Shown: positions 3,160-38,191 of the stretch, one piece after another
Position numbering within the stretch: the first letter of the stretch is position 1
How the letters are laid out: every line of letters begins with the position of its first letter
Source of the DNA: a virus
Length of the DNA stretch: 59,976 nt
Virus record (IMG/VR): IMGVR_UViG_3300032116_000208
Coordinates: 1-59,976 of that record
Reading direction: 5' to 3' (one strand)
Program-made: the position numbers and the translations under genes
The notes under the pieces: model-generated
The model's database searches: none
Told to the model about the DNA's origin: nothing
The model's input: only the letters and a program-made list of their open reading frames with translations

Positions 3160-6100
3160 ATGCCTTTCGTACCACTCCGTACTGTTGTTGGAACCGATGA
3201 AGAAGATACTGGTTTCAAGCCGTTGCGGGATGTCTACTTGGGGCCAGCTCCGCAGCGTGGGGCCATTGCTGCCGGTCTTTCGGCTGGTGTAGACCAGCTT
3301 CAGGGGTTGGGTTATAGCGCTCTTGGTGGTGTTGCCGATATTGCGGGGGCAAGTGGAGCTCGTGATTGGGCCAACGAACAAGCCCGCCGTAATCAAGTTG
3401 ACGCTTCTGTTGGCGGTCGCCCCGACCTTGAGCGTATCGAAGATCAGTCGCTTGGTTCTGCGCTGCCGTACTTAGGCTACCAAGTTGCCAAACAAGTTCC
3501 AACGATGCTCGGCATTGCGGGCGCACAGCTTATCCCCGGCGCTGGCCAAGTTGCTGGCGCTGTAGGTCTTACGCGACTTGGTGCTGTTGCACCTCGTATG
3601 CTGGGCGGCGGCGGTTTGCAAGCTGGCTCTAGCGCTGCGGCACGTCGTGCCGCTTTGGCGCAGGGTGAAGTTTTTGGTACAGGCACGCTGGCTGGTTCTG
3701 CCATGGGTTTTGGCTCGCTTTATGGCGAGTCTGTTGAAGGTGGTGACCCAAGCCCATTTAAGTCTTTGGCGCTGGCTCCAATTTATGGCGCTGCTGAAGC
3801 TGTTCTTCCTGCTGTGTTGCAAGGCAGTTTGCGTGCGCCAGCTAGGTACTCCGGCAATATTGGTACTCGCATGGCTAAAGCGGGTGGGGTTGCTGGTGCG
3901 GGCGAAGCCTTAACCGAACTTGGCCAAAACGAACTTGAGATGGGTATGCGGTCAGACTTGACCGCCGAAGAAATGGCGTCTCGCCGCCTTAACGCAGCAG
4001 CAGCTGGCCTGATTGTTGGTGGTAGTTTGGGTACTGTTGGCGGTGTTCGTGGTCCACGACGCCCTGACACAGAGTCAGACCTGACTCAGCCATTGGATAC
4101 CACTACACGCCCAGACCCCAGCCAGTTTGTGACGCAAGACCAGACTGTCGGCCTGAAGAAATTCATTGATGTAAACACTGGGGTGGTGCGTCCATCCCGC
4201 AAAGACTATGAGAAACAGTTTGAGGCTGCGTTTAACGAGCCTAGTGGTCAGTTTGTTGCTGATGCTGCTACTGGCGTTGAACGTGAACTGACTGTCGGTG
4301 AGCTGATGCAGCGTGGCTCTACGGCCATGGACTTGACTCAGGACAAGCCTGCTGACACTGCTGCCGCAGCTACTGCGGCTACTAATGTAGCTACTACGCG
4401 TGATCCACGCGATGTGTTCTTGCGCGATGAGCTCAAGGTAATCCCGAACAACAATAGCCGTCAGCTGTTTACGCTGATGGAAGAGCAGGGTGTTGACCCT
4501 ACGTCCCCAGCCATGGTTCCTGTATGGAACTACGCCGCTGCAAAGTACATGACTCCAAGCCGTCTGACAAAGGCCACAGAGCTGATGGATGCAGCCATCA
4601 TTCAGTCCCGCAAGGAGGCACCAATTGGCACAGGAATTTCTACTGTACAGCAGCCTGCAGGAGGCGTGGGAGTCGGGGGCCCTGTCGTTCAAGGAAGTGT
4701 GGGAAATGCAGGACGCCCTGCTCCTGTCGCAGGAGCAATGGACGGAAGTGCCCCAGCAGCTGGAGCCCCACTTCAACAAGCTGGCATTCTTCCAGTCGCC
4801 CCCGGGCAACCATCTACCACTGTAACCACCGGAGCACCAAGTGGCCCTCAAGCCTCTCAAACCATCCAAACAGCGCCGCAAGGACAAACCGCTACCACCG
4901 TTCCAGCTGCCGCCCCAGTAAGGGCCAATACAACGCTGCGCTTGAACCAGCAGGAAAAGCTGCCCGGTGAAACCGACATTACCAACATCGCGGATATTGC
5001 CCGCATGACAGGTAACGCTGGTGGGATTGATGCTGTTCTGGAAGACGAGGCTGGCTTGCGTGCTGACCAACGCGACTTTACGGACGATGACCTCAACGCT
5101 GTGATTGAAGAGCAGGTAGGCAAAGGCAAGAACGCAGATCGTGACCGTCAGATTTTGCGTGCCTACATCACAGCACGTCGTGCTGTACCGAGCGGCTACA
5201 AGGGCAACATCGCCAAGGAAATCGCTGACTCGTTTGGCATCGCTGAATCGCGGGTACGTCAGATCGGCAACCCAGAAAAGCTGGCTGATATTGCAGTGTC
5301 CATGGGATTTGATCGCGCTCAGGTGTTTGATCGCTTGGGTATCCAGTCAGCCCAAAAAGCCTTGGCTACTGAGTTAGGCAAACTCGAAGGCGAACTGACA
5401 CGCCTGAAGGCCAAAGCCAAACCGACCAAAGCTGACATTGCTCGCATGGCAGAGCTGGATGAGCAGATTACTCGCATCAACGATGAAGTTGAAGCTGGCG
5501 ACATGGCCGCTGCGTTTAAAGAAGCTGGCATCGAAGGCGAAGCCGGGGAAGCGTTTGGCAACTTGGACGACGCTCGTGAATGGCAAAAGGCTAGCACTGC
5601 TGGTAGCCAGATGGCTGTTAAGTTGGTCTCCATTGCAGACACCATTGCTGAGTTGAAGACCGCTGCTGCGGAGTTGAATCAACTGGGTCTGGCCCAAGCT
5701 GAGGCTGCTGCCGCTGAGCGCATTAAAGAACTGACTGCCGAGTACCAAGCAATTGTGTCTGGCTACGAAGCCAAGCCAGAAGCTGCTGCTCCCAAGAAGG
5801 GCAAAGGTAAAGGCAAAGCTGCTGAGAAAGCCTCTGAAGAAAAAGACGCTGCCAAGGAAGCCGAAGCTGCCAAGTTCCGCGCCGAGCGTGCGGCCAAGCT
5901 GCAGGCTGACCGTAACGGCCTTGCCGTTGGCGATACTGTCAAGAACCCCAAGCTGGGCACTGGCGTGGTTAAGAGCTTCGCTGGCGATGGCGATGCAACC
6001 ACTGTTACTGTAGCGTTCCAGAGTGGGCAGACCAAAGAACTGTCAGTCAAACTGGCAAAACTGGAGAAAACCGATGCCGTTCAAGTCGAAAGCCCAGCAG

Positions 6101-9100
6101 GGGTATCTGTTCAGCCAAAAGCCGAAACTGGCGAAAAAGTGGGCCGACAAGTACGGCGTGCCCCAAAGCCTGCCGCAGAAGGTAAAGCCCAAGTCCCAGC
6201 CGTCATCCTCACCCAAGCCGAGCAAGCAGCCCAAGCGTGGGATGTAGTCGCTGCTGACTTCCCAGAGGCTCCCAAGTTTGCTGATCTGACCAAGGCCCAG
6301 CAGAACACATTCATTGGCTTCGGTGAAGGTAACTGGGAGCGTGGTGACGTTGAGCTTGAGCTGACCAAGTTGGCCCGCGCTGCTGCGCCTACGCAACGAG
6401 CTATACGTCTGCGCCACGGAACAACTGCAGCCAACAAGGCGATGATCGAAAAACTCGGTCACATGGACCCAGAAGGCGGTGAGCGCCAGTACACGTACTC
6501 TGAATTTGGTCGTAAAGCCGTGTACCTTACTCGCCCTGAAGGTTGGTGGTTGGACAAAGAAAAAGCCGCCGCTGGGCGTGCCGTTGTTTACGATTCCTAC
6601 GTGGACGTTGAACTGCCAAGCGATGCAAACGTAGTCACCATAAACAACATGGCTGACTTTGAAGCGTTGGCAAAACGCGTCGGCGAGTCCAGTGCAAAGT
6701 CGATGGCTAACAAGCTGGCTGTTGATGGTTTGGATTGGCTATCTCAAGCCAAAGAGCTTCGGTCTATCACGTTAGATCAGGCTGTCCAAAAGTACATACG
6801 CGAGCAGAAAGAAAGCGCCGCCAAGTACGGGGGCTTTGATACTAAGGGGGTCAACACGCTTGGCGAATTGGCGGACTTCCTAAATACCAACGTAAACAAT
6901 CAGTACACCCAAACAACAGAAGCTGAACTGCGTACGCGCATCCGCGACAACTGGCTTGACGCGAAGTCTTACGAACTAGACACGTTTGGCGAATCTGATG
7001 CAATGACACAGAAGCTGATTGACGCTGGGGTGGACGTTATTGACATAGCTCCAGACGCAGACGTTGGCGTTGCTGCAGATCAGGTTGTAGTGTTGCGCCC
7101 AGAACTGGTCAAACTTGCATCGGCTGTAAAACAGCAAGAGGCTTTCTTGCGCAAGTCGCGCCGCAGCGTTCGCACTGCTGACCAGAGCGGTGTGGAGTTT
7201 GAGTCTGTTGAGGCTTCGCTGGACGACCTGTCTAACTACTCCGAGGGCATTGCTGCTGGCATCCGTAGCCTGCGCGACGTTGACATGGGCAACGCTGTTG
7301 ACGCTATTGACTCATGGATGGTCACGTTCTCCCCAGTGTCGTGGGACGCCATCTACACCATGATCGACGGCAAGCGCACCATCATCTACAACGGTGTGAT
7401 TCTCAAGGACAAGGTTCTGTCTACTGTTGCTACTCTGCACGAAGTCGGCCATGGCATTGACGAGGTACAGGGCGGCGCTGGTAAGTTCTCTGGCGGTGCG
7501 GAGTTCAGGATGTCTCGGGTAAACGGCGAGCTGATGTCCATGCGCCCCGGCACGGTTGCAGACGAACTCTTGAACCACTGGGAAGATGCAAGCGAGACGT
7601 CAGCTTTGGGCGGTATGCTCAACTATCCGCTGGACATGACAGACCCGGAAAATCGCTCCCTGACGATGCAAGAGCTGCGTGAGGAAGTCTTTGCTCAGGT
7701 TTGGGCTTTCTCAAATCTGAACGGCGGCATGGATTACCTCCGTGATAACCTGCCCACGACACACGCTTTTATGGAGAAGGCACATGAACAAGTCAAAGCC
7801 ACAAACTACCAACGCGCCCAAGGTGCCCAGCAAGGTGCTCAGTCAGGACAAGTTCAAGCTGGACAGCAAAACGCGCAGCCTGCTGGGGCAGTTCTTAGAG
7901 CCAGCCGTCAAGCCAAACAAGGGCTGATCGACCGCAACATTGCCAAGCTGCCGAAGATGTCTCAGCAACCGGTACGTAACTTGGCCGGTGCTCTTGGTGA
8001 CATTGGAGGTGCTGGTCTGGACTACGTTGTGTTCACCAGTGACTTGGTCAAGCGTGCTGTTGCCGCTGGCCTGCCTGCTGCTCAGACTTTCTCCGACCGT
8101 CTTGCTTCGCGTAACGCCAAGGTCAGTGAAGAGGAACGCAAGATCGAAAAGATTGCAGACCGCTATGCGTCCATTGAGGACGACGCCAAGGGCAGTGGCC
8201 CCGGCTCGGTCAACGAGTTCTTGTTTGAGTCCACCCGCACAGGCAAGTGGGGCTATGGCAAGTTCCGTGACGCCAAGATGGGCGCTGCGTTCGATGCGTT
8301 GGGCCCCAAGGCTCAGCAGTTCGTCAAGGACGTGTTTGCCCATGGTGACGCCACGCTGTCCAACAAGAAGAAGATTGTCTTGGACGCAGCCAACTCTGAG
8401 TACGACGCCATGATTAAGGCAGCTCAGGACGCTGGTGACACCAAGACTGAGGCTACTCTCAAGGCTGAGAAAGCCGCTACGCTCAAGCGCTTTCAGACAC
8501 TGTTCCGCATCCGCGAGGGCATGCCTTATGCGCCCATCAAGCGCACTGGTTCGTATGTGGTAATCGGCGAGTCTGCTGAGTACCAAAAAGCCAAGGCTAA
8601 CAAAGACACCGCCACGCTCAAGAAGCTGGAGTCTGACCCAGACCATTACCATGTGTCGTTCACAGACACCAAGTGGCAAGCCCGTAGCCTGCGTGACAGA
8701 CTAGCAGAGCAAGGCGTGTTCACTGACCCGCAAGTTGTTTCTCGCTCTGAGTCCTTTGACGAGGCGTTCAGTGGTGAGGCCATGCTGCCAGCCCTGACAA
8801 AGATGCGTGCCGCTGTGGATCGCCGTGCTCAGGACTCTACTGGCAAGAAAGACCCGACTGCTGGCAAGCTGCTCAACATCATCAACCAGTTGTACTTGGA
8901 GGCGTTGGCTGAGGGTAGTGCTCGCAAGTCTGAGATGCGTCGTCGTGGTGTAGCCGGTGAAGTGGACATGCTCCAGTCGTTCACCCAGCAAGGTCGTGCC
9001 GATGCCAACTTCTTGGCCAGCGTTGAGTTTGAGCCTAAGATTCAGGATGCCTTGCAACAGATGCGTAACCAGTCACGCACTGGCGACCGCGAACGCAAGT

Positions 9101-10674
9101 CCGAAATCTTCGACGAGTTGACCAAGCGCTACGCAGGTACGCTGGACCCACAGCCAAGCCCGTTCATCAACGGTCTGACCAACATGGCGTCCAAGTTCTT
9201 CTTGGCCTCCAGCCCCGGCTACTACTTGCAGAACTTGACACAGCCGTTCATGATGTCCCTGCCTGCCATGGCAGGTCGTCACGATTACACCAAAGCTGCC
9301 GCTGAGCTGGCCAAGGCGTACGGTGAGTTGGGCCCACTGTTCAAGGATGTGAAGCTGTTCGACGAGCAGTTTGACTTCTCCAAGGTGCCTGCTGACGTGC
9401 GTAAAGCCATCAACGAGTTGGTCAACCAAGGCAAGATTGACATTGGTCTGGCCACTGAGATCAACGAGTACAAGGTAGAAGCCGACAACAAACTCAGCAA
9501 GTTTGCGCAGCGTTTGAACAAGGGCATGCGCTTGGCCGTGCAGAAAGTGGAAGCTACCAACCGCCTGTCTACTGCCATTGCTGCCTACCGTTTGGAGTTC
9601 GCCCGGACTAAGGACGCTGACAAGGCAACCCAGTACGCTGCTGACATCCTGACTGACACCCATGGTGACTACACAGCCTTCAACGCTCCTCGTGCGTTCA
9701 ACACCCAGTGGGGTAAGGTGGCTTTGCAGTTCCGCAAGTTCCAGTTGATTCAGATCGCGTTCTACTCCAAGCTGGTTCGTGACGCGTTCACCAATCCTGC
9801 CGAGCGTGCAGCAGCCATGAAGACTCTGGCCTATTCGCTGAGCCACACTGCCGTGTTCGCTGGCATGATGGGCTTGCCCGGCTACGCTGCCATTTCTGCA
9901 ATCTTGGGCTTCTTCGGTGACGAGGACGAGCCGTACGATCTGACTGCTGAAATGCGCAAGGCGCTTGGCCCTGAGTGGGCTAACATCATCATGCGTGGCG
10001 CTCCAACCGTTGTGGGTATGGACTTGTCCGGCAAGATCGGCGCTGGCAACATGCTGTCCATCATGCCATTCAGTGACGCTGACTTGAGCACCAACGCAGG
10101 TCGCGCCGAAGCTTTCGGTACATTGATTGGTGGTGCAGCTTTGGGGATGACATCCCGCATCATTGACGGCCTTGGCCTGATTGCCAGCGGTGACTACTAC
10201 AAGGGTGTTGAGCGTGTTATGCCAAAGGGTGTGTCCGACGCGCTCAAAGCTGCACGCCAAGGTGCTGAAGGTATGACTCGCCGCAACGGCGATGTGGTCT
10301 TGCCCGACAGTGAGATCAGCTCCCTCGACACAGTATTTACTGCGTTGGGTGTGCCTGCTGTAGAGCAGACTGTAACCTACGAGCGTCAGAACCGCATGCG
10401 CGATTTGACCAAGAACTTCCAAGACCGCACCACGCGTATCAAGAACGACTACGCCAAAGCTGTCCGCGAGAAGGACACTGCTGCCATGGCCGAAGCCCGC
10501 ACTGCATGGACTAAACTCCAGCAGGCTCGCCAGCGTAACGGCTTGACACCACAGCCAGTATCCAGCCTGCTGAAAGCACCGCAGGAACAGAAGGCTCGTG
10601 AGCAGCGCACCGTAGGTGGTGTACAGTACCGCGAAGGCCAGCGTAAACTGGCAGAATCCGTAGCAGCAGATTAA
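3160..10674 (+). CDS. Giant internal virion / polyvalent injection protein with ART-like and HEXXH segments
   Basis: This 2504-aa product is the largest in the genome and starts behind AAGGGGTCGCA. It fits the giant T7 gp16-like injection protein or a large polyvalent protein. Visible parts in order: Gly/Ala-rich hydrophobic N-terminal region (about 30-290), low-complexity linker (about 490-590), helix-turn-helix-like segment around YKGNIAKEIADSFG (about 685), long coiled coil (about 735-900), KOW/Tudor-like unit around VKNPKLGTGVVKSF (about 930), and an ART-like region (about 1085-1320) opening with RLRHGTTAANK and ending AADQVVVLRPE. A metallopeptidase-like HEVGHGID motif begins at residue 1427, with E1508/E1509 possible third ligands. 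The remainder is helical, with a hydrophobic segment near 2230-2250. The enzyme labels are motif-based inference. Confidence 0.65.
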   Translation: MPFVPLRTVVGTDEEDTGFKPLRDVYLGPAPQRGAIAAGLSAGVDQLQGLGYSALGGVADIAGASGARDWANEQARRNQVDASVGGRPDLERIEDQSLGSALPYLGYQVAKQVPTMLGIAGAQLIPGAGQVAGAVGLTRLGAVAPRMLGGGGLQAGSSAAARRAALAQGEVFGTGTLAGSAMGFGSLYGESVEGGDPSPFKSLALAPIYGAAEAVLPAVLQGSLRAPARYSGNIGTRMAKAGGVAGAGEALTELGQNELEMGMRSDLTAEEMASRRLNAAAAGLIVGGSLGTVGGVRGPRRPDTESDLTQPLDTTTRPDPSQFVTQDQTVGLKKFIDVNTGVVRPSRKDYEKQFEAAFNEPSGQFVADAATGVERELTVGELMQRGSTAMDLTQDKPADTAAAATAATNVATTRDPRDVFLRDELKVIPNNNSRQLFTLMEEQGVDPTSPAMVPVWNYAAAKYMTPSRLTKATELMDAAIIQSRKEAPIGTGISTVQQPAGGVGVGGPVVQGSVGNAGRPAPVAGAMDGSAPAAGAPLQQAGILPVAPGQPSTTVTTGAPSGPQASQTIQTAPQGQTATTVPAAAPVRANTTLRLNQQEKLPGETDITNIADIARMTGNAGGIDAVLEDEAGLRADQRDFTDDDLNAVIEEQVGKGKNADRDRQILRAYITARRAVPSGYKGNIAKEIADSFGIAESRVRQIGNPEKLADIAVSMGFDRAQVFDRLGIQSAQKALATELGKLEGELTRLKAKAKPTKADIARMAELDEQITRINDEVEAGDMAAAFKEAGIEGEAGEAFGNLDDAREWQKASTAGSQMAVKLVSIADTIAELKTAAAELNQLGLAQAEAAAAERIKELTAEYQAIVSGYEAKPEAAAPKKGKGKGKAAEKASEEKDAAKEAEAAKFRAERAAKLQADRNGLAVGDTVKNPKLGTGVVKSFAGDGDATTVTVAFQSGQTKELSVKLAKLEKTDAVQVESPAGVSVQPKAETGEKVGRQVRRAPKPAAEGKAQVPAVILTQAEQAAQAWDVVAADFPEAPKFADLTKAQQNTFIGFGEGNWERGDVELELTKLARAAAPTQRAIRLRHGTTAANKAMIEKLGHMDPEGGERQYTYSEFGRKAVYLTRPEGWWLDKEKAAAGRAVVYDSYVDVELPSDANVVTINNMADFEALAKRVGESSAKSMANKLAVDGLDWLSQAKELRSITLDQAVQKYIREQKESAAKYGGFDTKGVNTLGELADFLNTNVNNQYTQTTEAELRTRIRDNWLDAKSYELDTFGESDAMTQKLIDAGVDVIDIAPDADVGVAADQVVVLRPELVKLASAVKQQEAFLRKSRRSVRTADQSGVEFESVEASLDDLSNYSEGIAAGIRSLRDVDMGNAVDAIDSWMVTFSPVSWDAIYTMIDGKRTIIYNGVILKDKVLSTVATLHEVGHGIDEVQGGAGKFSGGAEFRMSRVNGELMSMRPGTVADELLNHWEDASETSALGGMLNYPLDMTDPENRSLTMQELREEVFAQVWAFSNLNGGMDYLRDNLPTTHAFMEKAHEQVKATNYQRAQGAQQGAQSGQVQAGQQNAQPAGAVLRASRQAKQGLIDRNIAKLPKMSQQPVRNLAGALGDIGGAGLDYVVFTSDLVKRAVAAGLPAAQTFSDRLASRNAKVSEEERKIEKIADRYASIEDDAKGSGPGSVNEFLFESTRTGKWGYGKFRDAKMGAAFDALGPKAQQFVKDVFAHGDATLSNKKKIVLDAANSEYDAMIKAAQDAGDTKTEATLKAEKAATLKRFQTLFRIREGMPYAPIKRTGSYVVIGESAEYQKAKANKDTATLKKLESDPDHYHVSFTDTKWQARSLRDRLAEQGVFTDPQVVSRSESFDEAFSGEAMLPALTKMRAAVDRRAQDSTGKKDPTAGKLLNIINQLYLEALAEGSARKSEMRRRGVAGEVDMLQSFTQQGRADANFLASVEFEPKIQDALQQMRNQSRTGDRERKSEIFDELTKRYAGTLDPQPSPFINGLTNMASKFFLASSPGYYLQNLTQPFMMSLPAMAGRHDYTKAAAELAKAYGELGPLFKDVKLFDEQFDFSKVPADVRKAINELVNQGKIDIGLATEINEYKVEADNKLSKFAQRLNKGMRLAVQKVEATNRLSTAIAAYRLEFARTKDADKATQYAADILTDTHGDYTAFNAPRAFNTQWGKVALQFRKFQLIQIAFYSKLVRDAFTNPAERAAAMKTLAYSLSHTAVFAGMMGLPGYAAISAILGFFGDEDEPYDLTAEMRKALGPEWANIIMRGAPTVVGMDLSGKIGAGNMLSIMPFSDADLSTNAGRAEAFGTLIGGAALGMTSRIIDGLGLIASGDYYKGVERVMPKGVSDALKAARQGAEGMTRRNGDVVLPDSEISSLDTVFTALGVPAVEQTVTYERQNRMRDLTKNFQDRTTRIKNDYAKAVREKDTAAMAEARTAWTKLQQARQRNGLTPQPVSSLLKAPQEQKAREQRTVGGVQYREGQRKLAESVAAD

Positions 10675-28650: not shown

Positions 28651-29757
28651 TCATTGCTCCAAGGTAAAGTGGATATTGTCGCCGTAAGGAGCCACGATGT
28701 CACTAGAGATACACCAGACGACTGGGTACTCGGGCTCGTTGGCTGTGTTGAAGTCTGTGTAACCGTCGGTGAGGCACACGAACACCTCGGGCTTGATACC
28801 CTCCTTGGCGATGTAGTTGAAGCCCTCCTCCATGTCAGTGCCACCGCCACAGTAGAACGTCAGCGCCACCTCCTCGCCCTGCTCGAACACCTCGTGCTTG
28901 GCTACGCTAGTGTCAACATACAAGACATGGACGCGGGTGGGGTTGCACATAGACACGATGCGCTGTAAGTGGCCGTTGTAGTGGTCAAGCTCGACCTTGG
29001 AGATAGAGCCAGACACATCGACTTGGATGACAACCTCGCCCATCTCAGGGGACTTGCCTGTGGATGGAAGATAGCAGTCAACGAAGCGGCGGTTAGGACG
29101 CGACCATGTGTAGTCACCACGGGTGAATGTGGTCATGTAGCGCTCAAGAATGTCGTGCCATGGTGTCTGTGTGTCGATGAGGTCAGCGACGATCTTGGCC
29201 AGCGCACCGGGCATCTTGCCCTGAGCCTTGGCTGCTTGGGCAGCTTGGGCAATCTCTACGCGAGTCTCGGCGTCGATGCGGTCAGCCTCCTCTGGAGTGA
29301 GTGGTGTGCCACGCTCAATCAAGTCATCACCAGTACCACCGGGGCCATGGCCGTCAGGCTGGTCAGGCAGCTTGTTGTAGATGACGTCTACTGTCTCGTC
29401 CTTGGAGCCGGGCATATTGACACAGCCCTCGATCTGCTGACCGATGCCAGCATCCTTGAGCATGTCGTTAATCCATGCGTCACCAGCGATGTTCCACTTC
29501 TTGGCGTTACGCGCACCACGTCGCAGTGCATGCTGACCGATGACATGGCCGACCTCATGGCACAGCAAGAACACAAGCTCGTCAACAGACAGCTTGTCAA
29601 CGAAGTCCTTGTTGTAGTAAATCTGACCGCGCTGGTCAACAGCTGCAGTCTTGATGGTGTTGTCCTCGATGAGCTTGCGCTTCATGAGGATGGATGCAAA
29701 GAACGGATGCTGTGTGACAACAGCAACTTTGGCTCTGTCAAGTGTGGTAACTGCCAT
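28651..29757 (-). CDS. DUF2201-like VWA / putative metallopeptidase protein
   Basis: The 368-aa product joins two parts. The N-terminal part has a zinc-binding HEVGH (H67, E68, H71) within LVFLLCHEVGHVIGQHALRR, typical of DUF2201-like metallopeptidase modules. The C-terminal part is a von Willebrand A domain with MIDAS D247-x-S249-x-S251 (VIQVDVSGS), CGGGTDMEEG and CLTDGYTDF. Such proteins pair with MoxR/CobS-type AAA ATPases as in cobalt chelatase-like systems. Here the AAA gene lies upstream in the same operon. The protein target is unknown. Confidence 0.8.
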   Translation of the reverse strand: MAVTTLDRAKVAVVTQHPFFASILMKRKLIEDNTIKTAAVDQRGQIYYNKDFVDKLSVDELVFLLCHEVGHVIGQHALRRGARNAKKWNIAGDAWINDMLKDAGIGQQIEGCVNMPGSKDETVDVIYNKLPDQPDGHGPGGTGDDLIERGTPLTPEEADRIDAETRVEIAQAAQAAKAQGKMPGALAKIVADLIDTQTPWHDILERYMTTFTRGDYTWSRPNRRFVDCYLPSTGKSPEMGEVVIQVDVSGSISKVELDHYNGHLQRIVSMCNPTRVHVLYVDTSVAKHEVFEQGEEVALTFYCGGGTDMEEGFNYIAKEGIKPEVFVCLTDGYTDFNTANEPEYPVVWCISSDIVAPYGDNIHFTLEQ

Positions 29758-31658: not shown

Positions 31659-31921
31659 GTCTCTAACCTCACAACAGTATCCACCCAAGCCTTGGCTTCA
31701 TGGACATGGGCGAACTCCGGTATGTCTTCTGGGTTGTCAATCCAGTAGCGGCGGTCTGTTACCTTCCAGCGCAGGGGGCCCCCGCCCCGACCGCGCCCTA
31801 GGTACTTGACTTCAAACAGCCTGCGTACTACGCCAGCGGCGTCTAAGCCTTTGTAGTCCCCGCTCAACGCCCATGTCTCGCCGTCGTCGCGGGTGTGCCA
31901 CTTAAGGTCTGTTACGGTCAC
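31655..31921 (-). CDS. Small protein of the AK-A-(Y/W) family, 88 aa
   Basis: The GTG start at 31921 overlaps the AAA gene stop (GTGA) and has AGAGGTG ahead of it. The product MTVTDLKWHTRDDGETWALS... continues with VKYLGRGRGGG and RYWIDNPEDIPEFAHVHEAK. It shares the terminal strand-helix unit with its neighbours. Function is unknown. Confidence 0.5.
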   Translation of the reverse strand: MTVTDLKWHTRDDGETWALSGDYKGLDAAGVVRRLFEVKYLGRGRGGGPLRWKVTDRRYWIDNPEDIPEFAHVHEAKAWVDTVVRLET

Positions 31922-32916
31922 ATCAGCACCTCTGCGTTCTTGCTTGCCCACTCGACGAATGCACGGCTGTGCTTGATCGTAGGCTGCAACTTGATTGCGT
32001 CCTTGGTTGCCATGACGTTGAACTCTGGCGACATACGTGACAGGTACTTAGACACACGGTCGAAGTTATCCTTGGTCGACTTACGAGCCAGCGCACCAGT
32101 CAGAGCGTACAGAGTCGCAGGGTCTTGCGGCACGTCAGCACCAGCAGGGTCGAGCAAGATAGAGTCAACGTCAGGCAGTGACATGTAGATGCGACGGAAG
32201 CCAGTGAACTCAGCAGCAGCGCCCTCGCCTACCTCACCAGCGCAGTTGTCGAAGAACAGGCCAGAGTCAAGGCTGTCAGGGATGAGGTTGACACGCTCCC
32301 ATGCACGAGGCGTAGGGTTGGCGAAGCGATTGGCATCGAAGTCAGACAGCAAGCCGGGACGGAAGCGCAGGAACTGAATCAACACAGGGTCAATGTCGTT
32401 GTCGAGCGCCCACTCAGTCCAGTCGTCGATGTTCTCTTGGAAGTCGAAGCGCCGTGTGCGGTTGGCCAGCTTGGATGTGATGCGGTTGGCACCAGACTTG
32501 TCCTCGGTACGGTTGCCAGTGGCGATGATGAACAACTCGTCAGACAGCTTGAGGTTGCCAGCACGACGGTCGTAAATCACGCCACACAAGGCGTTCTGCA
32601 TGGGGACAGGTGCATCGCTGAGTTCCTCCAGAATGAGTGCTGAGCGTCCAGTACCCTCGCGCAACTGATAGAACTCTTGGGGTGGAACCCAGCGTGTGAA
32701 GTCGCCAGTGTTGTCAGGTACACCGAGCACGTCAACAGGGTCACGCAGTGACGCAGTGAACTCGACGACATTCTCGATGCCAAGTGACTGCACAATGTCA
32801 CGGGCACAGGCTGACTTGCCACCGCCCGGCGCACCGAGGATGAATGGAACAACGGCGTTACCACCGTCTACGCTGAACTGAGAGAGCACGGATGTGCGGA
32901 TGTTGCTGTATCGCAT
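31918..32916 (-). CDS. MoxR/CobS-like AAA+ ATPase
   Basis: The 332-aa product starts behind CAAGGAAAATC. Walker A GAPGGGKS (28-35), Walker B SALILEELSD, sensor segment LFIIATGNRTED and an Arg-finger region ANRTRRFDFQE are all present, and the small domain follows with PTPRAWERVN. This is the MoxR/CbbQ/CobS type, which works with VWA partners in assembling or remodelling complexes. The VWA protein and a DUF3150-like protein are encoded in the same operon. The gene opens the unit behind a leader repeat. Confidence 0.8.
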   Translation of the reverse strand: MRYSNIRTSVLSQFSVDGGNAVVPFILGAPGGGKSACARDIVQSLGIENVVEFTASLRDPVDVLGVPDNTGDFTRWVPPQEFYQLREGTGRSALILEELSDAPVPMQNALCGVIYDRRAGNLKLSDELFIIATGNRTEDKSGANRITSKLANRTRRFDFQENIDDWTEWALDNDIDPVLIQFLRFRPGLLSDFDANRFANPTPRAWERVNLIPDSLDSGLFFDNCAGEVGEGAAAEFTGFRRIYMSLPDVDSILLDPAGADVPQDPATLYALTGALARKSTKDNFDRVSKYLSRMSPEFNVMATKDAIKLQPTIKHSRAFVEWASKNAEVLM

Positions 32917-32922
32917 GATTTT

Positions 32923-32935
32923 CCTTGTGTGTTGA
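32923..32935 (-). promoter_or_regulatory. Leader repeat upstream of the AAA gene
   Basis: TCAACACACAAGG lies directly before the AAA start codon and contains its ribosome-binding site, matching the copies at 28427-28440 and 35226-35236. The remaining 110-bp gap holds the hairpin at 32960-32987 and no gene. Confidence 0.5.
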
Positions 32936-32959
32936 GGATGTGTGCGTCTGGATGCCTGC

Positions 32960-32987
32960 CCCCATGCGTGACGCATGAACGATGGGG
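32960..32987. other. Hairpin in the AAA-gene leader
   Basis: CCCCAT (32960-32965) pairs with ATGGGG (32982-32987), and inside the loop ATGCGT and ACGCAT (32964-32976) form a 13-base palindrome with one central base. It may terminate the upstream unit or act on translation of the AAA gene. No T run follows closely. Confidence 0.5.
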
Positions 32988-34143: not shown

Positions 34144-34157
34144 GTATGTATACACAC
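34144..34157. promoter_or_regulatory. Palindromic operator-like site 1 (one mismatch)
   Basis: The 14-mer GTATGTATACACAC differs at one base from the repeated palindrome GTGTGTATACACAC. It overlaps a second palindrome, ACACACC-TATA-GGTGTGT (34152-34169). The 149-bp gap 34024-34172 around it has no gene. Confidence 0.65.
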
Positions 34158-34172
34158 CTATAGGTGTGTAGG

Positions 34173-34343
34173 TTATCTACTGAATCGTTCGGCCAAGTAT
34201 TCGCGGTATGCGAACTCGGGGTCGTCCATGTCCAATGGACTTGTGTCTGTTGAGGCCTCGAAAACGAACGGCTCATCGAGGGGTTCGTCCATGTGCGTAT
34301 ACACACGTTCGGTTGTTGGCAGGATGAAATAGTGTCGGGACAT
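34173..34343 (-). CDS. Acidic peptide with operator in its coding sequence, 56 aa
   Basis: The ATG at 34343 follows AGGAGTCATC, and a perfect GTGTGTATACACAC lies directly upstream of that ribosome-binding site (34359-34372). The product MSRHYFILPTTERVYTHMDE... is very acidic in its second half and ends YLAERFSR. A one-mismatch operator copy (34293-34306) lies inside the gene. Function is unknown; it may be the first early product under RHH control. Confidence 0.5.
   Translation of the reverse strand: MSRHYFILPTTERVYTHMDEPLDEPFVFEASTDTSPLDMDDPEFAYREYLAERFSR
34293..34306. promoter_or_regulatory. Palindromic operator-like site 2 (inside gene)
   Basis: GTGCGTATACACAC has one mismatch to the repeated palindrome and lies within the coding sequence of the 56-aa gene. 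Confidence 0.5.
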
Positions 34344-34358
34344 GATGACTCCTATGGT

Positions 34359-34372
34359 GTGTGTATACACAC
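34359..34372. promoter_or_regulatory. Palindromic operator-like site 3
   Basis: A perfect GTGTGTATACACAC immediately upstream of the ribosome-binding site of the 56-aa gene on the minus strand. The same placement is seen before the RHH gene (35996-36009). Confidence 0.75.
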
Positions 34373-34391
34373 CTATCCAAGGTTGATGGGG

Positions 34392-34425
34392 TAATTAGAC
34401 AGAATTTATTGGGCTTGTCTAATTA
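34392..34425. repeat. Inverted repeat TAATTAGACA / TGTCTAATTA
   Basis: TAATTAGACA (34392-34401) and TGTCTAATTA (34416-34425) are exact inverted repeats around a 14-base AT-rich loop. Related TGTCTAATTG and GGATAATT units follow at 34485-34704, so this belongs to an iteron-like region. Confidence 0.6.
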
Positions 34426-34484
34426 GGTGGGCGCTCGAAACCCGCATGGATACTGGGCTAGCGGGGTGATGTTAAGGTTTACCC

Positions 34485-34704
34485 TTGTCGAATTATCCAA
34501 GTCGGAAAAAGGGGGTCAGGAATTTTAGGGGGCTTCATGATGTGTGGCGCTTGGCGCTTCATGCACGAACAAACACACGCATCGTCATGTGCATCCTAAA
34601 TACTTGGATAATTGGATAATTGTCTAATTGCAGATGTAACCCCTTGATTTTAAAGAGAAACCTAATTATCCAAGGGCAAAAGCCCCTTGGATAATTGGAT
34701 AGTC
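34485..34704. repeat. AT-rich iteron-like region with repeated TTGGATAATT units
   Basis: TTGGATAATT or its complement occurs repeatedly: GAATTATCCAA near 34490, TTGGATAATTGGATAATT at 34604-34621, CTAATTATCC at 34662-34671, and CTTGGATAATTGGATAG near 34687-34703. AATTATCCAAGGG (34664-34676) and CCCTTGGATAATT (34684-34696) form a 13-bp hairpin with a 7-base loop. The 380-bp stretch 34344-34723 has no gene. Such spacing and composition suit an origin or an initiator-binding site. Confidence 0.6.
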
Positions 34705-34708
34705 AGAT

Positions 34709-34722
34709 GTGTGTATACACAC
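34709..34722. promoter_or_regulatory. Palindromic operator-like site 4
   Basis: A perfect GTGTGTATACACAC extended to an 18-base palindrome with AT at both ends (34707-34724). It abuts the stop of the 164-aa gene. Confidence 0.75.
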
Positions 34723-34723
34723 A

Positions 34724-35218
34724 TTAGGCAGTGATAGCGGCTTGCTTGGCTTTGGCATCGGCAGAATACGCCTCAGCATCGGCAACCATGTCAGTGGCGA
34801 CTGCCTTGAGTTCCATCAATTTGGCCAGTGTCGCACCTGCCTTGAGTGCGCCAGTCTTTTTATCGGTAACCATACCGCCAGTCTTGGACAGCTTGGCCTT
34901 CATGATACGTGCCTCGAATTGGTCAGGCAGTGACTCGAAAGCCGCACGATTGGAGATAACCATTGGCTCACCGAGTTGTGCGGCAAAGTATTCGCCAACT
35001 GGACGATAGTTGCATGAAGGCCATGCGGCTTGCTTGGCCAGAGCTTGGACACCACCATTGGCGATGCCATTACGTGCGGCTACACCAAGTTTGCCCTTGG
35101 CATTGGCGAGCGCCATTTTGGTGTAAGGGCTTGAGTCTTGCACGACAGACAGCTGTCGCTCAGTCTTGGTTTTGCCAGTTACGTTGATGATTGCGGGAGT
35201 GTAAGTTGCGAGTTCCAT
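34724..35218 (-). CDS. Hypothetical protein in the control region, 164 aa
   Basis: The ATG at 35218 follows CAAGGAAATATC. The product MELATYTPAIINVTGKTKTE... continues with PYTKMALANAKGKLGVAARN, WPSCNYRPVGEYFAAQLGEP and a Lys/Ala-rich helical C-terminus (AEAYSADAKAKQAAITA). No family was recognised. It stands alone between the iteron region and the divergent intergenic region, so it may be the first minus-strand gene expressed and could act in replication or early control. Confidence 0.5.
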   Translation of the reverse strand: MELATYTPAIINVTGKTKTERQLSVVQDSSPYTKMALANAKGKLGVAARNGIANGGVQALAKQAAWPSCNYRPVGEYFAAQLGEPMVISNRAAFESLPDQFEARIMKAKLSKTGGMVTDKKTGALKAGATLAKLMELKAVATDMVADAEAYSADAKAKQAAITA

Positions 35219-35225
35219 GATATTT

Positions 35226-35236
35226 CCTTGTGTTGA
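35226..35236 (-). promoter_or_regulatory. Leader repeat upstream of the 164-aa gene
   Basis: TCAACACAAGG, a shortened version of the TCAACACACAAGG leader seen before two other minus-strand genes, overlaps the ribosome-binding site. Confidence 0.45.
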
Positions 35237-35797
35237 ATGATTGAACGGTGACAATGCACCACATAGCCCACTGGTGCCAATGAGCTATAGGTTGAATTGG
35301 TTTTGCGACTTGCTGTTCTTGGTGTCGCCCGAGACCTCACCGGCCCTTGTTCATAGGTGACCGTTACCTGCGACCGTGATTCAACGGTGCGTCTGACTCT
35401 AGGGTTCTTGCCTAGTCCGTCCCGCAGATGCTCAGATACTCGGTTTTGTGGGTGGCCTAATGATTCGATCACGGGTTGTCTCTCGACAAAGCGTTCGCCC
35501 TGTGTGTTGCCCGCCAATGGACAGCGCACACTCAAGCGTTATCGGGTTAATTCGCCCCTTACCACAAACCCACCGAAGTGAGATGCGATTGCGTGCCCTC
35601 GACTATTCACACGCACCTATTCACGCCACTGAATAGGGATTCCAATACGAATTTTTAAAGACCGGATTCCATCAAAAGCCCCTTACCATGTGACCGCATC
35701 AACCCTGAGGTATCCGCACGCACCTGTCCCTAAGTCCAGCCGCTAGTCGATAAAGAACAATCTCACACGGAGCGAACGGTGCGATCACCGCTCAATG

Positions 35798-35848
35798 TAG
35801 GCAACCTTGATAACTCAGAGTCCCTACACAATAGGCAACCTTGATAAC
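35798..35848. repeat. 17-bp direct repeat TAGGCAACCTTGATAAC
   Basis: Two exact copies (35798-35814 and 35832-35848), 34 bp apart start to start, in the divergent intergenic region. They may bind an initiator or regulator. Confidence 0.65.
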
Positions 35849-35936
35849 CGACCACCCCCCACAGGCCCCCCAACGGGCCACCCCGCCCCCCGACTGCTTA
35901 CGACGCGCTCAATCATCATGAGCAAAAAATCAAGAC

Positions 35937-35950
35937 GTGTGTATACACAC
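35937..35950. promoter_or_regulatory. Palindromic operator-like site 5
   Basis: Perfect GTGTGTATACACAC, 59 bp upstream of site 6. The two bracket the probable promoter of the late arm. Confidence 0.75.
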
Positions 35951-35995
35951 CTGTTGCGTAAAAACCACAAAAAATACGAAAAAACCCGGTAGAAT

Positions 35996-36009
35996 GTGTG
36001 TATACACAC
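35996..36009. promoter_or_regulatory. Palindromic operator-like site 6
   Basis: Perfect GTGTGTATACACAC ending 2-3 bases before the AAGGAC ribosome-binding site of the RHH gene, so binding here would directly block the late arm or RHH autoregulation would result. Confidence 0.8.
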
Positions 36010-36025
36010 CTTTTAAGGACCAAAA

Positions 36026-36217
36026 ATGAAGCGCTGGAACCTGTTTTTGCCCCCCGAACTCATCGAAAAATACAAGCAAATGGCCACCAAAAAGGGCGTT
36101 TCGTCGGCAGAAATGGCCCGAATTGCCATGGAAAAGTACGCTCAGGCCGTGGAAAAAGCTAAAGCGCGAGGTGACGAGACGCAAAAACAGGCTGCGGAGA
36201 CTGCAAATGCTGGCTGA
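36026..36217 (+). CDS. Ribbon-helix-helix (CopG/Arc-like) DNA-binding protein
   Basis: The 63-aa product starts behind TTAAGGACCAAAA. KRWNLFLPPELIEKYKQMAT gives the antiparallel strand and first helix, and KKGVSSAEMARIAMEKYAQ the second helix, the standard RHH plan; a Lys/Ala/Glu tail follows. RHH dimers bind short palindromes, and two perfect GTGTGTATACACAC copies lie just upstream. Autoregulation, and control of both arms, are likely by inference. It is the first gene of the late operon, and its end overlaps the TerS gene by 11 bp. Confidence 0.75.
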   Translation: MKRWNLFLPPELIEKYKQMATKKGVSSAEMARIAMEKYAQAVEKAKARGDETQKQAAETANAG

Positions 36218-36719
36218 TGACACCCCAATGGACGATACGCCTCTGGAGTACAAGCCAAAAAACACCTCATTCCCGCAGATAAGCGAGGAGATGGTAGCCT
36301 CGGTAGCTTTGGGGCTGGAAGATGAGCTGATCGTGGCCAGTCGGCACGGTCTGTCGGTCGAGCAGTACCAAGAGTTGGCCGCGCAGCCGTGGTTTCAGCT
36401 CCAAATTCAGGTAAAACGGTCCGAGTACGAGAAAAATGGCGTCACGTTCAAGGCCAAGGCTGCATGGATGGCCGGGGAGTTGCTCGATCAGGTGTACGTC
36501 ACTGCGGCGTCCCAAGATGCCAGCTTGAACCAGAAGCACGAAGTCCTCAAGACGCTCATCAAGGCCGCAGGTCTGGAGCCCAAGGAGGAAAAAGTCAAGG
36601 ACACTGGGCCGGGATTCAGTATCAGCATCGACTTGGGAGGTGGCCAGTCCATATCCCTGAGCAACCAGCAGACCCTCACGCCGGTTACACTGGACGCAGA
36701 GGTCAAGGAGATTAAGTGA
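36207..36719 (+). CDS. terS: Terminase small subunit
   Basis: The ATG at 36207 follows GGAGACTGCAA and is preferred over an in-frame start at 36123 that runs inside the RHH gene. The 170-aa product is helical with an HTH-like N-terminal part (SVEQYQELAAQPWFQLQIQV) and a coiled part (AWMAGELLDQVYVTAA), then a beta-type C-terminal end. The position directly before TerL, with a GTGA overlap, identifies it. DNA recognition for packaging is the expected role. Confidence 0.7.
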   Translation: MLADDTPMDDTPLEYKPKNTSFPQISEEMVASVALGLEDELIVASRHGLSVEQYQELAAQPWFQLQIQVKRSEYEKNGVTFKAKAAWMAGELLDQVYVTAASQDASLNQKHEVLKTLIKAAGLEPKEEKVKDTGPGFSISIDLGGGQSISLSNQQTLTPVTLDAEVKEIK

Positions 36720-38191
36720 GCAGCACATACAAACCGACAGAGACCCAGCGGAACTTCATGCTGGATGAATCCTATGTTCGGGTGCTGGCTGGGCCCGTCG
36801 GTGGCGGTAAGTCCGTTACTTGCGTACATGAGCTGGTGCGTCTGGCCTGTGGCCAAGCGCCGAACGCCAAGGGTGTGCGCAGAACTCGGGCGATCATCGT
36901 GCGTAACACCGCCGACCAGCTGGCGCTGACGACACGTAAGACGGTGTTCGACTGGCTGCCGCCCGGTGAGGCTGGTATCTGGAAAGCCGTGGAGAAGACG
37001 TTTATCCTGATGGCCAAACTGCCAGATGGGACACAGGTTGAGTCGGAATGGATTTTTATCCCGTTGGATACGCCGGACGACGTGCGTAAGGCGCTGTCAC
37101 TGGAGACCACGTTCCTGTGGGGCAACGAGAGTCGAGAACTCAACAGCGAAGTTGTGGACGGCCTGCTGTCACGTCTGAACCGATATCCGTCAGCCAAGGA
37201 CGGGGGGCCCACCCGGTCGTGTGCGCTGTTCGACACCAACATGCCAGACGAGGACACGTGGTGGCACGACAAGATGGAGAACCCGCCGAGCAACTGGGCC
37301 ATACATAAGCAGCCTGCGGCGATCCTCAAGCCAGAGGTGTACCTTGAGCGGTTCGGCGAAGAGCCTGAAGAGGTGCTGCTGGACAAGGACGATAACGAGT
37401 GGGCGGTCAACCCCGAGTGCGACAACTACAACCACCTGCCCAAGCAGTACTACCCCAACATCATCCCGGGTAAGACTGAGGACTGGCTGCGGGTGTACCT
37501 GCGCTCGGAGTATGGGCGCAGCCTGTCCGGCACCCCGGTGTACGAGAAGACGTTCACGCATGAATTCCACGTATCCAAGGACAAGATCAAGGCTATACGC
37601 AGCGAAGAGTACCCGGTCATCATCGGTCTGGACTTCGGGCGCACTCCGGCAGCCGTGTTCAAGCAGCGCGACCCACGCGGGCGCGTAGTGACTCTGGCCG
37701 AGCTGACGTCGGAGAACATGGGCATCGAGACGTTCCTGCGGACGAAGCTGAATCCGTTCATTGCGAACAACATGCAGGGGTGCTCGTTCCTCGTAGCTCC
37801 TGACCCGGCTGGGTACGCCAAGCAGCAGCAAGGCGAGATGTCGTTGGTGGATATCGTCAAGCAGGCTGGGTTCAAATGTCAGCGACCACCAACAAACGAC
37901 CCGGAAAAGAGGATTCAGGCAGTTGAGCGCTTGCTTGTACAACAGTTGGAAGGTAAGGCGATGTACCTTATCGACCCGGGGTGTACCCAGCTCATCAAGG
38001 GTTTCCGGTACGGTTACCGGTACAAAATCAAAAAGTCCGGGGAGATGGAAGACAAGCCGGATAAGAACGCGTTCTCCCACGTCCACGACGCCAACCAGTA
38101 TGCCGATGCCATCATTGATATGAACGTCCGTGGGGCTACGGTTAACAACGCCCGACGCGAAATCAAGAAGTCCGGTTATTCGTACTCTTGA
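36716..38191 (+). CDS. terL: Terminase large subunit
   Basis: The 491-aa product begins at GTG 36716 overlapping the TerS stop. Walker A GPVGGGKS (26-33) and a Walker B-type ETTFLWGNESRE are visible in the ATPase, and the RNase H-like nuclease has VIIGLDFGRTPA followed by VAPDPAG and HVHDANQYADA. It packages DNA into procapsids, with headful or cos cutting not decidable from this sequence. All key motifs are intact. Confidence 0.92.
   Translation: MSSTYKPTETQRNFMLDESYVRVLAGPVGGGKSVTCVHELVRLACGQAPNAKGVRRTRAIIVRNTADQLALTTRKTVFDWLPPGEAGIWKAVEKTFILMAKLPDGTQVESEWIFIPLDTPDDVRKALSLETTFLWGNESRELNSEVVDGLLSRLNRYPSAKDGGPTRSCALFDTNMPDEDTWWHDKMENPPSNWAIHKQPAAILKPEVYLERFGEEPEEVLLDKDDNEWAVNPECDNYNHLPKQYYPNIIPGKTEDWLRVYLRSEYGRSLSGTPVYEKTFTHEFHVSKDKIKAIRSEEYPVIIGLDFGRTPAAVFKQRDPRGRVVTLAELTSENMGIETFLRTKLNPFIANNMQGCSFLVAPDPAGYAKQQQGEMSLVDIVKQAGFKCQRPPTNDPEKRIQAVERLLVQQLEGKAMYLIDPGCTQLIKGFRYGYRYKIKKSGEMEDKPDKNAFSHVHDANQYADAIIDMNVRGATVNNARREIKKSGYSYS

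What the first reader, a model, noticed from the sequence alone, without database searches (positions are those of the whole stretch)
34144..36025. Six-copy GTGTGTATACACAC palindrome array around the arm switch, with an RHH gene directly behind one copy
Four perfect and two one-mismatch copies occur only between 34144 and 36009. In two cases the palindrome sits immediately before the ribosome-binding site of a gene on opposite strands (34359-34372 for the 56-aa gene, 35996-36009 for the RHH gene). The RHH gene is next to two copies. I infer a shared repressor that controls both arms and itself; the number and position of copies seem more extensive than a usual single-operator switch.
Basis: partly seen in the sequence, partly recalled or inferred. 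Interest (0 to 1): 0.65.

Follow-up and report, generated by a model that had tools for sequence, protein, structure and literature searches.

The report
Phage repressor with many-operator control hub
A family of uncultured tailed phages keeps up to eight near-identical copies of a 14-base palindrome in one 2-kb control region and almost nowhere else in the genome; the copies very probably bind a small ribbon-helix-helix protein encoded as the first gene of the packaging operon, which would let one repressor control itself and both halves of the genome.

Summary
GTGTGTATACACAC occurs as four perfect and two one-mismatch copies, all within 34144-36009, and nowhere else in the 60-kb record. The array is conserved: in 20 of 23 related IMG/VR records searched whole the 14-mer (up to one mismatch) occurs, with up to eight copies in the same 2-kb interval. 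A -10 box followed directly by the palindrome (TANAAT+14-mer) occurs 32 times in 2.9 million viral contigs, all 32 directly upstream of an RHH gene of this family; the same string plus CT is absent from 84,980 bacterial and archaeal genomes. The RHH gene (36026-36217) is the first gene of the terminase operon and overlaps the next gene in nearly all relatives. Best reading: a phage-encoded RHH autorepressor that covers its own start site and also sits at gene junctions, and inside one small gene, of the opposite, replication-side arm. Binding and repression are inferred, not shown. It is a new variant of a known kind (viral RHH autorepressor with several operators). The hub also contains an iteron-like repeat block and a ~700-nt conserved, probably structured RNA region with no Rfam match; both deserve separate study.

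The parts
34144..34157 (.). Operator copy (GTATGTATACACAC, 1 mismatch), just past the stop codon of the 56-aa gene
   Evidence: counterparts in L010, L011, L014, L015, L016, L020, L022
34173..34343 (-). 56-aa left-arm gene (unknown function) that carries an operator inside its reading frame
   Evidence: homologues in 19 related loci; codons
34293..34306 (.). Intragenic operator copy (GTGCGTATACACAC, 1 mismatch), 66 bp from the next copy; the 66-bp spacing recurs in L010, L011, L014, L015, L022
34359..34372 (.). Operator copy (perfect) directly before the ribosome-binding site of the 56-aa gene
34373..34708 (.). Non-coding block between two operators with iteron-like 8-bp tandem units (TTGGATAA/TTGTCTAA) and a 13-bp hairpin (34664-34696); candidate origin or second regulator's target (inference)
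34709..34722 (.). Operator copy (perfect) abutting the stop codon of the 164-aa gene, before the terminator-like hairpin
34724..35218 (-). 164-aa left-arm gene, unknown function
   Evidence: relatives 68-100% identical; no significant Pfam, PHROG or GenBank phage match
35222..35936 (-). Conserved ~700-nt non-coding region, probably a structured RNA read leftwards; its first ~150 nt are conserved in nearly all relatives
   Evidence: no Rfam match
35937..35950 (.). Operator copy (perfect), 59 bp upstream of the next one, between the two arms
35990..35995 (+). -10 box TAGAAT of the RHH/terminase promoter, directly abutting the operator; TANAAT in most relatives (TATAAT in L012, L032, L034, L035)
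35996..36009 (.). Operator copy (perfect) that should cover the transcription start of the RHH/terminase operon (predicted near 36002)
   Evidence: start site inferred from the -10 box
36026..36217 (+). 63-aa ribbon-helix-helix protein, proposed repressor; N-terminal strand MKRWNL(F/Y)L nearly invariant
36207..36719 (+). 170-aa probable small terminase subunit (by position only); start overlaps the end of the RHH gene by 11 nt
   Evidence: no GenBank phage match, no significant family match
36716..38191 (+). Large terminase subunit

Best explanation
The 14-mer is the operator of the 63-aa RHH protein encoded at 36026-36217. RHH dimers bind the two halves of the palindrome (extended form ANGTGTGTATACACACNT). 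At 35996-36009 this covers the start site of the promoter for the RHH gene, the terminase genes and what follows, giving negative autoregulation of the packaging operon. The other five copies lie between the arms (35937) and along the first genes of the opposite, replication-side arm (34709, 34359, 34293, 34144), where the same protein would shut down or throttle left-arm transcription by blocking starts or elongation. The net effect would be one protein that sets the level of the packaging operon and times the shut-off of the other arm in what looks like a purely lytic phage. Shown here: the sites, their confinement, conservation, linkage to the RHH gene and its -10 box, and the RHH relationship of the protein. 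Inferred: binding, repression, timing.
For: Six copies in 1.9 kb and none elsewhere. Up to eight copies in the same layout in relatives. TANAAT+14-mer occurs 32 times in all IMG/VR contigs, 32 of 32 directly before an RHH start; the same string plus CT occurs 0 times in 84,980 cellular genomes. Most operator columns are invariant (2 bits) against 0.68 bit on average for the upstream flank in 34 distinct contexts. RHH relationship: Pfam RHH_5 E=7e-5, PHROG CopG-like repressor E=2e-5, profile match to CopG E=2e-4, Foldseek top hits VapB, StnY, CopG, Arc. The DNA-contacting strand is nearly invariant, as is the operator. In the small left-arm gene a palindrome with the GTATAC core is kept although the encoded peptide and reading phase differ between clades (RVYTH versus MYVYI). 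RHH is the first gene of the terminase operon with an overlapping start in nearly all of 45 loci.
Against: No binding or expression data. The Pfam score is below the curated cut-off (22.9 versus 26 bits). No convincing -35 box at the RHH promoter and no clear promoter for most left-arm copies (and reading of the sequence). The three most distant RHH genes (L047-L049) lack the full palindrome and have only half-sites such as CATACACAC upstream. F7/Y7 in the protein goes with ACAC/ATAC in the RHH-side operator, but this is one clade and other sites do not follow it, so it is not independent proof.
Confidence: 0.8

Rival explanations
1. The RHH protein binds the array, but along the left arm it works chiefly as an elongation roadblock (stoperator-like), not as a classical promoter repressor. 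This is a variant of the best explanation, not exclusive of it.
For: Left-arm copies sit at a stop codon, inside a gene and before ribosome-binding sites rather than on -10 boxes, much like L5 repressor sites in short intergenic spaces (PMC9283540).
Against: Sites are symmetric, so they cannot be oriented with transcription as in L5; candidate -10 boxes (TCTAAT, GATAAT) lie within about 25 bp upstream of the 34359 copy and several of its counterparts.
Confidence: 0.3
2. The array marks a packaging or replication site and the RHH protein is an accessory of the terminase or of the origin rather than a gene regulator.
For: The RHH gene overlaps the probable small terminase gene; an iteron-like block and a GC-rich tract lie inside the array.
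Against: The best-conserved copy abuts a -10 box and start codon; copies are spread over 1.9 kb and one is inside a gene; contig ends cluster near the GC-rich tract but at different bases, so no fixed genome end is seen.
Confidence: 0.1
3. A partition (centromere-like) array bound by a ParG/Omega-type RHH protein of a phage-plasmid.
For: RHH proteins of this size do bind repeat arrays next to their gene (established knowledge of ParG and Omega).
Against: No ParA-type ATPase (AAA_31) in the record although the control search rang in 14 of 14 genomes; irregular spacing; sites tied to gene borders.
Confidence: 0.03
4. The palindrome is the site of another protein, of host or phage, and the RHH gene is only a neighbour.
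For: Linkage within one phage family cannot by itself name the binding protein.
Against: 32 of 32 linkage; the promoter-operator string is absent from cellular genomes; RHH is the only DNA-binding protein recognised next to the array in the searches made.
Confidence: 0.07

Closest known systems
CopG / Arc-type RHH autorepressors (plasmid pLS1 CopG, phage P22 Arc)
   Same: Short RHH protein and symmetric operator on its own promoter; profile and fold matches. By eye, strand residues R3, N5, F7 line up with Arc Q9, N11, R13 (own alignment from memory of Arc, a lead only).
   Different: Few operators in those systems; here six to eight copies over 2 kb, and the gene heads the terminase operon.
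SvtR and AvtR of archaeal viruses
   Same: Virus-encoded RHH regulators; SvtR represses its own gene and binds three other viral sites, most strongly a structural-gene promoter (PMC5569661).
   Different: Archaeal viruses with imperfect inverted repeats as sites; here a perfect palindrome repeated in one cluster.
Mycobacteriophage L5-type repressor and stoperators
   Same: One phage repressor with many sites in promoters and short intergenic spaces (PMC9283540).
   Different: L5 sites are asymmetric 13-mers spread over the genome and bound by a monomer with an HTH domain in temperate phages; here sites are symmetric and clustered, the protein is RHH, and no tyrosine integrase was found.

Membership tests
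Ribbon-helix-helix (MetJ/Arc/CopG) DNA-binding proteins | N-terminal strand followed by two helices, recognisable by profile | tested here: met
   RHH_5 E=7e-5 (below curated cut-off), PHROG CopG-like E=2e-5, CopG structure E=2e-4; helices predicted at 10-23 and 27-61, strand not formed in the monomer model
Ribbon-helix-helix (MetJ/Arc/CopG) DNA-binding proteins | Dimer that binds DNA through the paired strands | not testable with these tools
   needs protein and DNA; strand MKRWNL(F/Y)L nearly invariant
Autoregulating phage repressor | Conserved operator on the promoter of its own gene | tested here: met
   TANAAT directly abutting the palindrome before the RHH gene; 34 distinct contexts; 32 of 32 linkage
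Autoregulating phage repressor | Protein binds the operator and lowers transcription | not testable with these tools
   needs experiment
L5-type stoperator system | Asymmetric sites distributed over the genome and oriented with transcription | tested here: not met
   sites are palindromic and confined to 2 kb
RHH-based partition system | ParA-type ATPase in the element | tested here: not met
   no AAA_31 match in the record, control positive; other motor types not tested
Type II toxin-antitoxin (RelB/CopG antitoxin) | Toxin gene next to the RHH antitoxin | tested here: not met
   next gene is the conserved probable small terminase subunit followed by the large one; no toxin family match; RelB-like match of the window protein is weak (E=0.019, 15 of 50 bits)
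Temperate-phage immunity repressor | Integrase or prophage state | tested here: not met
   no tyrosine integrase; no RHH relative in 84,980 cellular genomes; serine integrases not tested

The most novel reading that the evidence does not exclude
A lytic-phage master switch in which one RHH protein, made from the head of the packaging operon, is spread over six to eight operators that bracket an iteron-like replication block and a ~700-nt structured RNA, coupling terminase level, shut-off of the replication arm, replication and a large non-coding RNA.
Probability: 0.25. Interest if true: 0.65.

Novelty: new variant of a known kind. Interest (0 to 1): 0.45.

Why it matters
It gives a clear, testable regulator-operator pair for a widespread uncultured phage family with no close GenBank relative, and a case where the first gene of the packaging operon probably controls both genome arms. 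The operator is specific enough that a 20-base string retrieves the family from millions of contigs. The hub also exposes a conserved long RNA region and an iteron-like block for which I found no description.

Tried and rejected
Protein-operator covariation (F7/Y7 with ACAC/ATAC): one clade only and not followed by all sites, so not used as proof. Extra half-site operators in the window: none of the extended form found. RNA-hairpin reading of the palindrome: the predicted start site falls inside it, so the full hairpin would not be in the RHH mRNA. Rfam and tRNA searches: nothing above threshold. DNA similarity to GenBank phages: none; RHH, probable small terminase and 164-aa proteins: none; only the large terminase has distant relatives, up to 39% identity. 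Cohesive-end reading of contig breaks: ends do not coincide. Literature search for the 14-mer: no paper. A possible leftward promoter just left of the 35937 copy (conserved TTG...GTCGTAAGC) is too weak to claim.

Full report
Observation. The four perfect and two one-mismatch copies of GTGTGTATACACAC are at the stated coordinates, and no other site with one mismatch or fewer exists in the 59,976-base record. A weight matrix from 106 sites (distinct 40-bp contexts) finds exactly these six in the window, against 0.2 expected in shuffled sequence, and shows a symmetric extension: A two bases outside each end, giving ANGTGTGTATACACACNT.

Relatives. A search with the RHH protein gave 45 related loci in IMG/VR, 55 with its alignment, none confirmed in 84,980 cellular genomes and none in GenBank phages. 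Of 23 related records searched whole, 20 have the 14-mer with up to one mismatch, with up to eight copies; the three without it are the most distant (L047-L049). In seven other full-length or near-full records the strong sites lie in the same interval; only isolated weak matches occur elsewhere. The layout is stable: one copy about 30-40 bp before the RHH start, one or two at about -70 to -170, one or two near -1200 to -1450, and up to four at about -1520 to -1960. One clade (L008, L021-L029) uses the variants GTGTGTATACATAC and GTATGTATACATAC next to the RHH gene. L047-L049 have half-sites only.

Link to the RHH gene. The string TANAAT followed by the 14-mer was sought in all 2.9 million viral contigs: 31 stretches, 32 occurrences, every one directly upstream (within about 60 nt) of an RHH start of this family. 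TANAATGTGTGTATACACACCT occurs nowhere in the cellular genome collection. In 34 distinct contexts most operator columns are invariant, the -10 box is clearly conserved, and the 44 bases before it average 0.68 bit. The -10 box places the start site inside the palindrome, so a protein bound there should block initiation (inference).

The protein. It is a short RHH protein: RHH_5 E=7e-5 though under the curated cut-off, CopG-like PHROG E=2e-5, profile match to CopG structures E=2e-4, and Foldseek hits led by VapB, StnY, CopG and Arc, with E-values near 0.1 (monomer model, pLDDT 74). The strand MKRWNL(F/Y)L is nearly invariant over 31 sequences. The gene is the first of the terminase operon: in nearly all 45 loci its end overlaps the start of the next gene, a probable small terminase subunit, with the large subunit behind it (terminase).

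The left arm. One copy (34709) abuts the stop codon of a 164-aa gene, one (34359) precedes the ribosome-binding site of a 56-aa gene, one (34293) lies inside that gene and one (34144) just after it. The intragenic copy is kept in relatives, mostly with the same 66-bp spacing; in the Y7 clade a palindrome with the GTATAC core is still there although the peptide and reading phase have changed. This argues for selection on the DNA. No strong promoter was found at most of these copies, so how they act is open.

Mechanism. I infer a negatively autoregulated RHH repressor that sets the level of the packaging operon and turns down the left, replication-side arm (DNA polymerase, helicase, primase, exonuclease). 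No tyrosine integrase and no ParA ATPase were found, so a lytic life style is likely and a partition role unlikely. Closest known are CopG and Arc for the protein, SvtR for a viral RHH regulator with several sites (PMC5569661), and L5 stoperators for many-site repression (PMC9283540), from which it differs by symmetry and clustering.

What else the hub holds. Between operators 34359 and 34709 is a 336-bp block with 8-bp tandem units TTGGATAA/TTGTCTAA; TTGGATAATT occurs 4-8 times there and nowhere else in seven of eight genomes compared. Between the 164-aa gene and operator 35937 is a ~700-nt non-coding region conserved in relatives, with 22 predicted pairs showing two-sided changes, a lower consensus energy than shuffled alignments on the leftward strand (z about -4.5 from 12 rough shuffles; -2.8 on the other strand), and a hairpin whose two arms change together (for example GCGGTG/CACCGT, AAGGG/CCCTT, GATGG/CCATC). 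No Rfam family matches. These are leads, not conclusions.

Noticed in passing
window 35222-35936 (- strand): About 700 nt of conserved non-coding sequence with compensatory changes, probably a structured RNA or leader of the left arm; two alternative versions of its parts are shuffled among relatives. No Rfam match.
   Followed up: partly
window 34373-34708: Iteron-like 8-bp tandem units (TTGGATAA/TTGTCTAA) with a 13-bp hairpin, confined to this block in seven of eight genomes; candidate replication origin or site of a second regulator.
   Followed up: partly
window 35798-35848: Two 17-nt direct repeats (TAGGCAACCTTGATAAC) 34 bp apart whose sequence changes in concert between relatives, next to a very GC-rich conserved tract (about 35858-35877).
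   Followed up: partly
L009, L026, L034, L047, L048, L083, L086 (contig ends): Many related contigs end 100-280 bp before the RHH gene, near the GC-rich tract but not at one base; an assembly break rather than a fixed genome end is likely.
   Followed up: partly
window 28651-29757 and 31918-32976: A MoxR-like AAA ATPase and a VWA/metallopeptidase-like DUF2201 protein lie close together on the left arm, like cellular MoxR-VWA pairs.
   Followed up: no
window 3160-10674: A 2504-aa protein whose C-terminal part matches DarB-like antirestriction proteins (PHROG 10089).
   Followed up: no
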